DNA from: Faecalitalea sp. UBA4312
GTDB taxonomy: Bacteria; Bacillota_I; Bacilli_A; Erysipelotrichales; Erysipelotrichaceae
DNA length: 14,171 nucleotides
Reading direction: 5' to 3'
NCBI GenBank assembly: GCA_002394635.1
Contig: DGUK01000086.1
Coordinates: 1 to 14,171, forward strand
The translations under genes and the position numbers were made by a program. Shown piece after piece: positions 1 through 11,266 of the stretch. The notes under the pieces are model-generated. The model was not told where the DNA came from. It searched no databases and worked only from the letters and a program-made list of their open reading frames with translations. Every line of letters starts with the position of its first letter. Position 1 is the first letter of the stretch.

Positions 1-580
1 TGCCTTTTGGAGCCGATTCATCAATGGGAATGACCAAGACCACAAAATCATTCGGTTTAATGAGGTCCGATACTAAAGGCCTTTCTTTTTTCTTCGGCGA
101 TAATGCGGCCAGCATTTCCTTCAGTTCCCGGATATGATAGCCCGTTAAAGCGCTGACTGCCAGATCGCCCTTTGCGACCGGTTCGATCAGATCGGCTTTA
201 TTGACAACCACGAGCGTCTGGATTTCCCTTTCTTTCAAGTCCCTGATCAAGGCTTTGTCGGCATCATCCATTCCCGTTGTTCCATCAATGATCACAACAC
301 CGATGTCACAATGATCCATCACTTCCCGTGTCTTTTGCACCCGTTTCTGACCTAGTTCTCCCTGGTCGTCATAACCAGGAGTATCCATGATCAATACCGG
401 CCCCAACGGTAAAAGTTCCATCGCTTTATAAACCGGATCGGTCGTTGTCCCTTTGATATCAGATACAACCGAAAGCTCCTGGTCTGTCAGGGCATTGATG
501 AGGCTGGATTTACCGGCATTTCGTTTTCCGAAAAATCCAATATGGATCCTATGACTGGAAGGTGTGCTATTTAATCCCAT
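1..580 (-). CDS. hydF: HydF, [FeFe]-hydrogenase maturation GTPase (N-terminal 193 residues; 3' end cut by window edge)
   Basis: HydF is the GTPase scaffold that carries the diiron subcluster precursor of the H-cluster and delivers it to apo-[FeFe] hydrogenase. The visible part is the GTPase domain: P-loop GKRNAGKS at residues 18-25, switch I around KGTTTDP (43-49), DTPG at 66-69, NKAD at 127-130 and a SAL G5-type motif at 143-145. It then enters the family-typical stretch VLVIPIDESAPKG (181-193). The dimerisation domain and the C-terminal Cys/His [4Fe-4S] ligands lie beyond the left edge and cannot be checked. The ATG at 580 overlaps the 3' end of the upstream NifK-like gene by 10 bases, so it is co-transcribed and probably translationally coupled. 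The unusual point is the context: the expected partners hydE and hydG are not adjacent on the visible side, and a nitrogenase-like pair sits there instead. Confidence 0.95.
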   Translation of the reverse strand, partial: MGLNSTPSSHRIHIGFFGKRNAGKSSLINALTDQELSVVSDIKGTTTDPVYKAMELLPLGPVLIMDTPGYDDQGELGQKRVQKTREVMDHCDIGVVIIDGTTGMDDADKALIRDLKEREIQTLVVVNKADLIEPVAKGDLAVSALTGYHIRELKEMLAALSPKKKERPLVSDLIKPNDFVVLVIPIDESAPKG

Positions 581-1698
581 TTCAGACCATCCTTTCCCCA
601 ATAATTAATCATATCATTTAAGTATAATCGTCCAGATAGGGCAAAATGTGGGACTTTTACCCATTTTTTATGATTTTTTGAAATATATTGAAACATCGGA
701 TCGCCGATGACGGTGTCATAGTGCAGTGCCTGTTCCATCGTTTCTTCATCCAAAGCGATGCATGTCTCTTTTAAACAAGCTCGATGATCTTTCTCTGTTG
801 TACAGATGACCTTCACCGGCTGCCGATAAGTAAGAAACCAATCCATGGCTATCGAATGAGCTAAGACCGGTTCCCCGATGACAGTTGTCTTTGCGTTTGT
901 CTGGATCAAGTTTTTATACATTGTCTGATTCTCATGGTCATGAACTGCCTGCTCCATCTTTTCAAACACCAGATCCTCGCAGGCTCCTACAGGTACTCCC
1001 AAAACATAAGGGATCCCACAGGATCTCCAAAGTACTTCCGCCGCTTGTAAACCACTTGATGAGATAACCAGGTTACACGATGCCTGTCCCGCTGTGGCAA
1101 TTTCTTCCAACGAACAATCCATCAGCCAGCATGACTGCACATGCCATCCATGAGCTTCGATCCTCTTTTTCAAAGAAGAAACACTCTCTGCATGTGTATA
1201 GTCCAGTGGCGTCATTCCCAGAATGTTTACGGTTTTTTCCCGTGTATTACCTTTTTTTACAAATTGTGTGGCAACCATTTCCATCGCTCGGCTGGCTCCT
1301 ACTGTATAATCATGCATACCGTTGGTCTTCACATACGTACAATCTAAAGACAGCTGTTTTTCCAGGATCCGACAAATTCCTTTAAAATCCGTTCCGTTTA
1401 AATACGGTATCGGTGAATTCACCAAGGTGATAAAACGCGGATGCAGCTGTTTTGCGGCCATAAGAATATCCTCGATAAACTTTTCATCATTTCCTAGAAT
1501 GGCATCTCTTTCCTTTAATCCGGAAATAAATATGAGGCTTTCCTGATCGTACCAACGGATCTCATCGTGCGTATTATAGGTGGAATTACAACCGGAAGGA
1601 TCATGGATCACCACCATGCCGCCCAATTCATAAAGGGCCGAACAAACACCGGATACATCTCCGGTATACACGGGCAATATTCGATAACTTCGTTTCAT
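571..1698 (-). CDS. NifK-like subunit 2 (nitrogenase component 1 family, 375 aa)
   Basis: This is a member of the nitrogenase component 1 superfamily (NifDK/NifEN/BchNB-type fold), paralogous to the NifK-like protein at 8225-9238. Shared landmarks are an SG..S..Y..GG..VI.D..GC block (residues 16-37) with Cys37, then DE.RW, IF.SGL..(R/D)DAI.G.DE, a SPIPYLNGTD block where NifK would carry a P-cluster Cys, and the C-terminal motif W(I/V)..PHFA(L/V)SG. At about 375 residues it is much shorter than NifK (about 520). ATG 1698 is preferred because its N-terminus aligns without gaps to the paralogue (MKRSYRILPV against MKGLRKYLTP) and it overlaps the preceding TGA as ATGA. A GTG at 1713, with AAAGGA five bases upstream, is an alternative start. 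It probably forms a heterodimer with the gene just upstream. It has no NifH of its own nearby, so it may share the one at 10496-11266. Its substrate is unknown. Confidence 0.85.
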   Translation of the reverse strand: MKRSYRILPVYTGDVSGVCSALYELGGMVVIHDPSGCNSTYNTHDEIRWYDQESLIFISGLKERDAILGNDEKFIEDILMAAKQLHPRFITLVNSPIPYLNGTDFKGICRILEKQLSLDCTYVKTNGMHDYTVGASRAMEMVATQFVKKGNTREKTVNILGMTPLDYTHAESVSSLKKRIEAHGWHVQSCWLMDCSLEEIATAGQASCNLVISSSGLQAAEVLWRSCGIPYVLGVPVGACEDLVFEKMEQAVHDHENQTMYKNLIQTNAKTTVIGEPVLAHSIAMDWFLTYRQPVKVICTTEKDHRACLKETCIALDEETMEQALHYDTVIGDPMFQYISKNHKKWVKVPHFALSGRLYLNDMINYWGKDGLKWD

Positions 1699-10515: not shown

Positions 10516-11266
10516 GTTGTTCTTCCTCAATGAGACGGTCAGCCAGAGCAAAGAAAGCCTGGCTGATTGGTAAACTGGCATCGCCTTCAATCACCGTCAT
10601 TCCCTGGTCTTCATACGTATTGATATCATCGCTGCGGGCAATATCCGCCACAATGTCAATGCCTGCTTCTTGTGTAAACGACTGCACCTTCTCATATTCA
10701 TTCGGCACATTCCTACGATTTAATACGACACCGTATACTTTAGCATAGCCACGGTCGGCGAAATTATTCACAGCCGTATTGATATTGTTAGCCGCATATA
10801 AAGCCATTTTTTCTCCAGATGTCACAATCAATACTTTCTCCGCATACCCTTCCCGGATCGGTGCCGCAAAACCACCGCAGACGACATCTCCTAAAACATC
10901 ATATAACACCACATCCGGTTCTACACTTTCAAAGAGTTCCAGCTCTTCCAATAAATTAAACGTAGCCAGTATCCCTCGCCCGGCACATCCTAATCCCGGC
11001 GTCGGTCCTCCTGTCTCTATACAGAGAACATGACCAAATCCTTCTCTGGAGATCTCATCCAGAGAGGATACATCATCATATTCCCGTAAAGTGTCCATTA
11101 CCGGTAATAATGGCTGTCCTCCTAACAAATTAATAGTTGAATCTGCTTTGGGATCGCAACCGATCTGGATCACTTTTTTCCCTCGCATCGCAAAAGCGGC
11201 AGCTAAATTGCTCGTAATCGTTGATTTTCCAATACCGCCTTTTCCATATACAGCTAATTTGATCAT
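10496..11266 (-). CDS. NifH-like ATP-dependent reductase (256 aa)
   Basis: This is a NifH/BchL/CfbC-type dimeric iron protein that couples ATP hydrolysis to low-potential electron delivery to a NifDK-like partner. The P-loop is GKGGIGKST (residues 8-16), followed by GCDPKADST (36-44). Both bridging [4Fe-4S] ligands are present: Cys94 in GLGCAGRG and Cys130 in DVLGDVVCGGFA, the latter in switch II. Arg97, equivalent to the ADP-ribosylated Arg of NifH, is kept. At 256 residues it is shorter at the C-terminus than NifH (about 290). The ATG at 11266 is fixed by a perfect AGGAGG six to seven bases upstream and by the P-loop position. It is the first gene of the operon and the only NifH-like protein here for two NifDK-like pairs. 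Confidence 0.93.
   Translation of the reverse strand: MIKLAVYGKGGIGKSTITSNLAAAFAMRGKKVIQIGCDPKADSTINLLGGQPLLPVMDTLREYDDVSSLDEISREGFGHVLCIETGGPTPGLGCAGRGILATFNLLEELELFESVEPDVVLYDVLGDVVCGGFAAPIREGYAEKVLIVTSGEKMALYAANNINTAVNNFADRGYAKVYGVVLNRRNVPNEYEKVQSFTQEAGIDIVADIARSDDINTYEDQGMTVIEGDASLPISQAFFALADRLIEEEQHESCSL

What the first reader, a model, noticed from the sequence alone, without database searches (positions are those of the whole stretch)
1..11266. Hybrid operon joining HypCDEF, two NifDK-like pairs with one NifH, a TM1266-type regulator and HydF: candidate new Fe-CO/CN cofactor pathway
Seen: twelve contiguous minus-strand genes with overlapping or near-overlapping ends. They draw on three metallocofactor worlds: [NiFe]-hydrogenase ligand synthesis (HypFCDE), nitrogenase-like reductases (NifH plus two component 1 pairs) and [FeFe]-hydrogenase assembly (TM1266-type protein, HydF). 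Known: HypCDEF make Fe(CN)2(CO), HydF is the scaffold for the diiron subcluster, and HydE/HydG normally supply the CO/CN-bearing iron from tyrosine. Inferred: here carbamoyl-phosphate-derived CN (Hyp) and ATP-driven reduction (Nif-like) may replace or extend radical-SAM HydE/HydG chemistry to feed HydF, or may build an unknown Fe-CO/CN cofactor. I do not recall this set being described as a system.
Basis: partly seen in the sequence, partly recalled or inferred. Interest (0 to 1): 0.95.

Follow-up and report, generated by a model that had tools for sequence, protein, structure and literature searches.

The report
Nitrogenase-like, HydG-free hydrogenase cofactor pathway
This bacterium carries an operon, shared with many gut bacteria, that joins two nitrogenase-like enzyme pairs and the cyanide-making Hyp proteins to assembly genes for [FeFe]-hydrogenase, and it likely replaces HydG, the enzyme that normally makes the carbon monoxide and cyanide ligands of that hydrogenase's active site.

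Summary
Minus strand: NifH, NifD1, NifK1, HypF, HypC, HypD, HypE, DUF1232, TM1266, NifD2, NifK2, HydF. Another contig of this genome overlaps the window by 25 bases, completes HydF and continues into HydE, not HydG. Two order relatives hold HydA, the Nif/Hyp genes, HydF and HydE in one run. Of 53 genomes with NifD1, 53 have HydA, 50 HydE, 1 HydG. Of 151 HydE genomes in a 285-genome order sample, 130 have HydG, 15 NifD1, none both, 6 neither. On a HydE tree the Nif-like label changes at least five times. The cluster's HypD is a clade apart from [NiFe]-linked HypD, and this genome has a second HypD-HypE beside its Ech-type hydrogenase. Against: 117 HydA genomes have neither system; one carrier has both. 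Best reading: a second route to the H-cluster's Fe(CO)2(CN) precursor, cyanide from HypF/HypE, CO and/or low-valent iron from ATP-driven Nif-like reduction. HydG replacement is inferred from genomics; the chemistry is untested.

The parts
10496..11266 (-). NifH-like Fe protein (NifH1), P-loop GKGGIGKST
   Evidence: PF00142 282 bits; C94 and C130, recalled as the cluster ligands, in 78/78 aligned NifH1
9238..10515 (-). NifD1, nitrogenase component-1-like alpha subunit
   Evidence: PF00148 111 bits; predicted fold matches nitrogenase, TMq 0.69; invariant cysteines in APGCC and CITC, none at the place aligned with the FeMo-co cysteine
8225..9238 (-). NifK1, component-1-like beta subunit
   Evidence: PF00148 92 bits; alignment A4
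5946..8228 (-). HypF carbamoyltransferase
   Evidence: TIGR00143 754 bits, cut-off 466
5734..5943 (-). HypC
   Evidence: TIGR00074 61 bits, cut-off 48; Cys2 in 69/69
4697..5734 (-). HypD, of a clade distinct from [NiFe]-linked HypD
   Evidence: TIGR00075 394 bits, cut-off 192.8; tree
3702..4700 (-). HypE with C-terminal cysteine
   Evidence: TIGR02124 434 bits, cut-off 251.6; terminal Cys332 in 65/65
3279..3680 (-). DUF1232 protein, probably a local addition
   Evidence: PF06803 33 bits; labelled in none of the 80 loci
3002..3265 (-). TM1266-type putative regulator
   Evidence: TIGR03959 110 bits, cut-off 60.8; also heads TM1266-HydE-HydG-HydF in the one HydG locus read, L087
1695..3005 (-). 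NifD2, second component-1-like alpha subunit, C-terminal CxxC
   Evidence: PF00148 38 bits; predicted fold matches nitrogenase, TMq 0.66
571..1698 (-). NifK2, second component-1-like beta subunit
   Evidence: PF00148 113 bits; alignment A3
1..580 (-). HydF, N-terminal part; the rest and then HydE lie on contig C37 (L100), which shares window bases 1-25
   Evidence: TIGR03918 235 bits over the half protein; exact 25-base overlap and continuing frame; HydF C-terminal domains and HydE, TIGR03956 579.5 bits, on C37

Best explanation
The operon joins NifH, two NifDK-like pairs and HypFCDE to HydF and HydE in genomes that carry [FeFe]-hydrogenase HydA and nearly always lack HydG, so it likely replaces HydG as the source of the Fe-CO/CN precursor of the H-cluster. 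Proposed mechanism (inferred, untested): HypF and HypE turn carbamoyl phosphate into a thiocyanate on the C-terminal cysteine of HypE, and the cyanide is placed on iron held by HypC-HypD. The two NifDK-like enzymes, fed with electrons and ATP by NifH, would then do the low-potential steps that HypCDEF cannot do alone: one would make CO (from CO2 or a bound precursor), the other would reduce or remodel the iron to Fe(CO)2(CN). HydE would dimerise this precursor, HydF carry it and HydA receive it, as in the known pathway.
For: Gene content: HydA in 53/53, HydE in 50/53, HydG in 1/53 genomes with NifD1. Exclusivity: of 151 HydE genomes in a 285-genome order sample, 130 have HydG, 15 NifD1, 0 both, 6 neither; Fisher p 3e-16, not corrected for kinship. 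Kinship check: on a quick HydE tree of 66 rows the Nif label needs 12 changes, at least 5 forced by branches with SH-aLRT 95 or more. Linkage: HydA-NifH-NifD1-NifK1-HypFCDE-NifD2-NifK2-HydF-HydE in one run in two relatives, 98% and 99% complete; HydF-HydE beside both Nif modules in L082 and inserted in L065. The one HydG locus read has TM1266-HydE-HydG-HydF, the gene set here minus HydG. Hyp client: 48/53 carriers have no [NiFe] large-subunit match at E 1e-10; the cluster HypD is its own clade, 100/100. Key residues kept: HypE terminal Cys 65/65, HypC Cys2 69/69, NifH Cys 78/78.
Against: No biochemistry. One carrier, Clostridium thailandense (G281), has both systems. Six HydE genomes of the sample have neither. 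Of 264 HydA genomes in the sample, 117 have neither HydG nor NifD1; 6 of these 117 have HydE, so lack of HydG beside HydA is common and mostly not explained by this unit. Three carriers lack HydE. The Fisher value ignores kinship, and the HydE tree could also be mixed by transfer of HydE itself. The own genome is 82% complete, so its lack of HydG is weak alone. Which Nif-like pair does what, and whether CO is made there, is shown by no call. HypA/HypB and genome-wide HydF were not searched.
Confidence: 0.8

Rival explanations
1. HypCDEF in the operon mature a [NiFe] hydrogenase and the Nif-like proteins do an unrelated reduction; the genes merely share an operon with HydF.
For: The own genome has an Ech-type [NiFe] large subunit with RTCGIC and DPCISC motifs. 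No HypF is labelled beside it in the 12 kb read, so the window's HypF may be shared.
Against: 48 of 53 carriers show no [NiFe] large subunit at E 1e-10; the own Ech operon has its own HypD-HypE; the two HypD kinds are separate clades; core order in 62 of 64 loci, the other two explained; HydA and HydE are in the same gene run in relatives.
Confidence: 0.06
2. The unit works in H-cluster assembly but at another step: for example it builds or installs the dithiomethylamine bridge or recycles damaged precursor, while CO and CN come from an unrecognised source.
For: No call shows which ligand the Nif-like enzymes make; nitrogenase-like enzymes reduce many substrates (recalled).
Against: The missing enzyme is HydG, and HypF/HypE are known cyanide makers (PMC6802093, passages). 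In the known pathway the bridge is made with glycine-cleavage proteins on HydF (PMC11736057, passages).
Confidence: 0.09
3. The operon builds a different, unknown Fe-CO/CN cofactor for another enzyme, and HydF/HydE are recruited for it.
For: Two enzyme pairs of unknown reaction.
Against: HydA is in 53/53 carriers and in the same gene run in two relatives; 0 of 15 carriers in the order sample have HydG to mature that HydA otherwise.
Confidence: 0.05

Closest known systems
HydE-HydF-HydG maturation of [FeFe]-hydrogenase
   Same: HydE, HydF and HydA are kept, and in the window the TM1266-type protein
   Different: HydG is missing; HypFCDE and two Nif-like pairs with one or two NifH are joined to HydF/HydE instead
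HypABCDEF maturation of [NiFe]-hydrogenase
   Same: HypF, HypC, HypD, HypE with conserved key cysteines
   Different: Own HypD clade, no [NiFe] large subunit found in 48/53 carriers, linked to HydF/HydE; no HypA/HypB in the window operon
Nitrogenase MoFe protein and NifEN
   Same: Component-1 fold and a NifH partner
   Different: The NifDK-like proteins score far below the curated cut-offs; no conserved cysteine at the aligned FeMo-co place in NifD1
Dark protochlorophyllide reductase and CfbCD
   Same: Nif-like reductases that act on a small cofactor (recalled); cysteines enough for one interface cluster
   Different: Below the family cut-offs; no tetrapyrrole gene in the window operon
Clostridium acetogens with HydE/HydF but no typical HydG, and HypCDEF without HypAB (PMC9431212)
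   Same: The same two absences, left unexplained by the authors, who also offer atypical HydG candidates
   Different: The paper's only 'nitrogenase' is in its reference list; whether those strains carry NifD1 was not tested here

Membership tests
HydEFG maturation system | HydG present | tested here: not met
   over cut-off in 1 of 53 carriers, not in this genome; 0 of 15 in the order sample
HydEFG maturation system | HydE present | tested here: met
   50 of 53 carriers, and on contig C37 of this genome
HydEFG maturation system | HydF with CxH...HCxxC cluster motif (motif recalled) | tested here: met
   11 of 13 long HydF ORFs in related loci; the two others are cut by the locus end. Not checked in the window's own HydF, whose second half is on C37
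[NiFe] Hyp maturation | a [NiFe] large subunit as client | tested here: not met
   no match at E 1e-10 in 48 of 53 carriers; present in this genome, but with its own HypD-HypE
[NiFe] Hyp maturation | HypA and HypB | not tested
[NiFe] Hyp maturation | cyanide-making and scaffold residues (HypE C-terminal Cys, HypC Cys2) | tested here: met
   65/65 and 69/69
Nitrogenase | FeMo-co cysteine of NifD (recalled as alpha-275) | tested here: not met
   no conserved Cys at the aligned place in NifD1; not aligned residue by residue for the other three subunits
Nitrogenase, NifEN, DPOR, CfbD | NifDK-like score over a curated family cut-off | tested here: not met
   best is 76 bits for NifD1 against NifE, cut-off 505
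Nitrogenase superfamily fold | component-1 fold | tested here: met
   predicted models of NifD1 and NifD2; NifK1 and NifK2 not modelled

The most novel reading that the evidence does not exclude
Nature has a second, HydG-independent way to build the H-cluster: a nitrogenase-like ATP-driven enzyme makes CO on a HypCD-bound iron that already carries Hyp-derived cyanide, and a second one reduces the unit to the Fe(CO)2(CN) precursor for HydE. The route has swapped with HydG repeatedly among gut Clostridia and is also found in Coriobacteriia and in the window's own lineage.
Probability: 0.55. Interest if true: 0.96.

Novelty: categorically new. Interest (0 to 1): 0.92.

Why it matters
H-cluster biosynthesis is described as one pathway that needs HydG. 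A second route would explain how carriers such as Blautia, Roseburia faecis and Coprococcus comes, which have HydA and HydE but no HydG over the cut-off here, make active hydrogenase. It could account for two unexplained absences noted in industrial acetogens, would give two nitrogenase-like families a function, and would offer a tyrosine-free way to make the cofactor. It also bears on the open question of where the CO ligand of [NiFe] enzymes comes from in anaerobes (recalled).

Tried and rejected
Rejected: that Hyp serves only [NiFe] hydrogenase. Rejected: that the stronger sub-threshold HydG matches in carriers are hidden HydGs: the two tested, L085 and L086, are ThiH (528 and 518 bits); the others of that score class were not tested. 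Three radical-SAM neighbours tested in related loci are HydE. My idea that most HydG-free HydA genomes hide a divergent Nif-like unit was wrong: of 70 such genomes tested 19 have any PF00148 protein, of 10 HydG genomes 3; some have four adjacent strong matches as in nif sets, which I did not identify further. A sample of the window's own class, which the tool does not name, was little use: 3 of 235 carry NifD1, this genome included. Rfam found nothing in the window. A neighbour of L032 that I first took for HydE is an esterase-like protein.

Literature: ten searches of open-licence PMC papers listed no paper that I could recognise as describing this set; I read only listings, and passages of PMC9431212, PMC11736057, PMC10418091 (unrelated) and PMC6802093, with section 17 of PMC9431212 whole. 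Subscription papers and bioRxiv are not held.

Rows dropped or chosen: NifD1 counts in the order sample use matches over 440 bits (15 of 24 genomes listed at E 1e-60); nine weaker ones of 208-252 bits were counted as not NifD1. Limits for HydG, HydA, HypD, HydE there were E 1e-75, 1e-40, 1e-50, 1e-70. The sample's centre, G242, is itself a carrier. The HypD tree used 40 of 71 Nif-linked rows (four fixed, 36 at random) and 21 others; L104, which repeats L110, and a short HypD of L109 were left out. The 17 NifD1-free HypD loci read were picked by me from 60 such genomes. The HydE tree used 26 HydG rows picked by me from the order sample. Of 80 loci, 50 were taken into the whole-genome tests with G000, G156 and G165, picked for spread and isolates.
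Full report
Observation. The window is bases 1-14171 of contig C47 of a 1.78 Mb draft genome, 82% complete. On the minus strand it carries NifH, NifD1, NifK1, HypF, HypC, HypD, HypE, a DUF1232 protein, a TM1266-type protein, NifD2, NifK2 and the first half of HydF; nine of eleven junctions overlap or leave at most 2 bases. 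HypF, HypC, HypD, HypE and TM1266 are over their curated cut-offs. The four NifDK-like proteins are in PF00148 but far below every named nitrogenase, NifEN, DPOR or CfbD cut-off.

Beyond the left edge. Contig C37 of the same genome ends with the same 25 bases with which the window begins; its frame carries on HydF and then HydE (579.5 bits, cut-off 254.6). In two relatives of the same order, 98% and 99% complete, the unit is in one run: a flavoprotein of the NAD(P)H type, HydA, NifH, NifD1, NifK1, HypF, HypC, HypD, HypE, NifD2, NifK2, HydF, HydE, without TM1266 or DUF1232. One has a further HydA after HydE. Neither genome has HydG over the cut-off. The own genome's HydA is a group A6 enzyme on contig C97 (839 bits, cut-off 765) with TSCSPGW, MPCIAKKSE and EIMGCPGGC, beside a NuoF-like protein.

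Conservation. A scan of one genome per species gave 521 pattern matches, 483 encoding a NifD1 relative; the best 80 were kept. By their titles they come from Lachnospiraceae, Oscillospiraceae, Eubacterium and kin, Clostridium and Coriobacteriia, several from jejunum, omasum or faeces. Of 64 with room, 62 show the core order and the two others are explained. Of 43 with more room, 40 have NifD2, 33 TM1266 and 26 a second NifH. The NifD2 module can stand before or after the NifD1 module. HydF lies within the fetched stretch in 18 of 80 and the HydE-like group in 10 of 80, so they are often elsewhere. In the order sample HydE lies within about 13 kb of NifD1 in 6 of 15 carriers, by the coordinates.

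Whole genomes. In 53 carriers (50 from named loci, this genome, two relatives): HydA 53, HydE 50, HydG 1, [NiFe] large subunit 5. The HydG carrier is Clostridium thailandense. In an order sample of 285 genomes around a Blautia: HydA 264, HydG 132, NifD1 15, HydE 151. Among the 151 with HydE: HydG 130, NifD1 15, both 0, neither 6. All 15 NifD1 genomes have HydA, HydE and HypD. HydE trees: in a quick tree of 66 rows the Nif label needs 12 changes, at least 5 forced by well-supported branches, and the HydG label 14, at least 6. Both are fewer than shuffled labels give (means 22 and 21), so partners are clustered, but the exchange has happened several times and the exclusivity does not rest on one clade. 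Transfer of HydE itself could add to this mixing.

Results against. 117 of the 264 HydA genomes have neither HydG nor NifD1. Of 27 tested by handle 24 lack HydE over the cut-off, and in the whole sample 6 of the 117 have it. So these genomes mostly have no canonical maturation that I can find, and I cannot explain their HydA. Of 80 genomes tested for PF00148, 70 of these and 10 with HydG, 22 have a match (19 and 3). Six HydE genomes have neither system, and three of the 53 carriers lack HydE. The Fisher value (3e-16) treats genomes as independent and is too strong.

Hyp. Of 17 NifD1-free HypD loci read, 11 have a [NiFe] large subunit near HypD (one of them a partial match), and their HypDs score 243-334 bits to the window's, while those of Nif clusters score mostly 487-590 (one cut copy 375). 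In a tree of 61 HypDs the Nif-linked ones form one side of a branch with support 100/100; some of the others have long branches. Two further carriers, G429 and G562, and this genome each have a second HypD next to an Ech-type subunit. This is an internal control: in these three, the [NiFe] enzyme has its own HypD. The cluster proteins keep the cysteines for cyanide synthesis and transfer.

Nif-like proteins. Predicted models of NifD1 (pLDDT 81) and NifD2 (pLDDT 89) match nitrogenase component 1 in the PDB. Each pair keeps cysteines enough for one cluster at the subunit interface (D1 APGCC and CITC with K1 GGCTGNIC; D2 VCxxNC and VCxHH with K2 PSGCN), as in DPOR (recalled). No conserved cysteine is at the aligned FeMo-co place in NifD1. 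That these pairs reduce a HypCD-bound precursor or CO2 is inference.

Mechanism. In the known pathway HydG makes [Fe(Cys)(CO)2(CN)] and passes it to HydE, which reduces it and is proposed to dimerise it; HydF receives the product and the bridge is added (PMC11736057, passages). HypE/HypF make CN from carbamoyl phosphate and HypC/HypD hold Fe(CO)(CN)2 (PMC6802093, passages). Here HydE, HydF and HydA are kept and HydG is absent, so the new genes should deliver what HydE needs. HypFCDE would supply cyanide on iron; the Nif-like pairs would supply CO and reducing power. Two pairs suggest two reductive steps, which I assign only tentatively.

Literature. PMC9431212 (section 17 read whole, other passages) reports eight Clostridium acetogens with HydE and HydF but typical HydG in only three, and five with HypCDEF but no HypAB, leaves both unexplained, and offers atypical HydG candidates. 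The hyp locus tags it quotes for C. ljungdahlii and C. autoethanogenum run F, C, D, E as here. Whether NifD1 is beside them was not tested. My ten searches listed no paper that describes this set; that is limited to the held library.

Verdict. The replacement of HydG by a Hyp/Nif-like module is strongly supported by genomics; the reaction of each Nif-like pair is open.

Noticed in passing
window 11286-11304 and 11408-11436, minus strand: A terminator-like hairpin with a T tail lies between a promoter-like site and the NifH start, so the operon may be controlled by attenuation.
   Followed up: no
order sample, 117 genomes such as G299, G301, G435: Many genomes of the sample have HydA but neither HydG nor NifD1, and 111 of the 117 also lack HydE at the limit used: HydA without known maturases.
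   Followed up: partly
G334, G356, G361, G388, G495, G499, G518, G303, G536: A more distant NifDK-like pair (208-252 bits to NifD1). G356 has HydE but no HydG or NifD1, so it may hold another variant.
   Followed up: partly
L108 (own contig C2) 56-9272: Ech-type [NiFe] hydrogenase genes with their own HypD-HypE, followed by a SPASM radical-SAM protein.
   Followed up: yes
L078 / G281: Clostridium thailandense carries both HydG and the Nif-like unit, plus a full [NiFe] large subunit and a lower-scoring HydE.
   Followed up: partly
L082 15898-16329: A pyridoxamine 5'-phosphate oxidase-like gene sits between HypD and HypE.
   Followed up: no
window 3279-3680: DUF1232 protein inside the operon, labelled in none of the 80 loci.
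   Followed up: no
window 11603-13131 and 13429-14169: Divergent sorbitol PTS genes and a homoserine dehydrogenase cut by the window's right end; ordinary neighbours.
   Followed up: no
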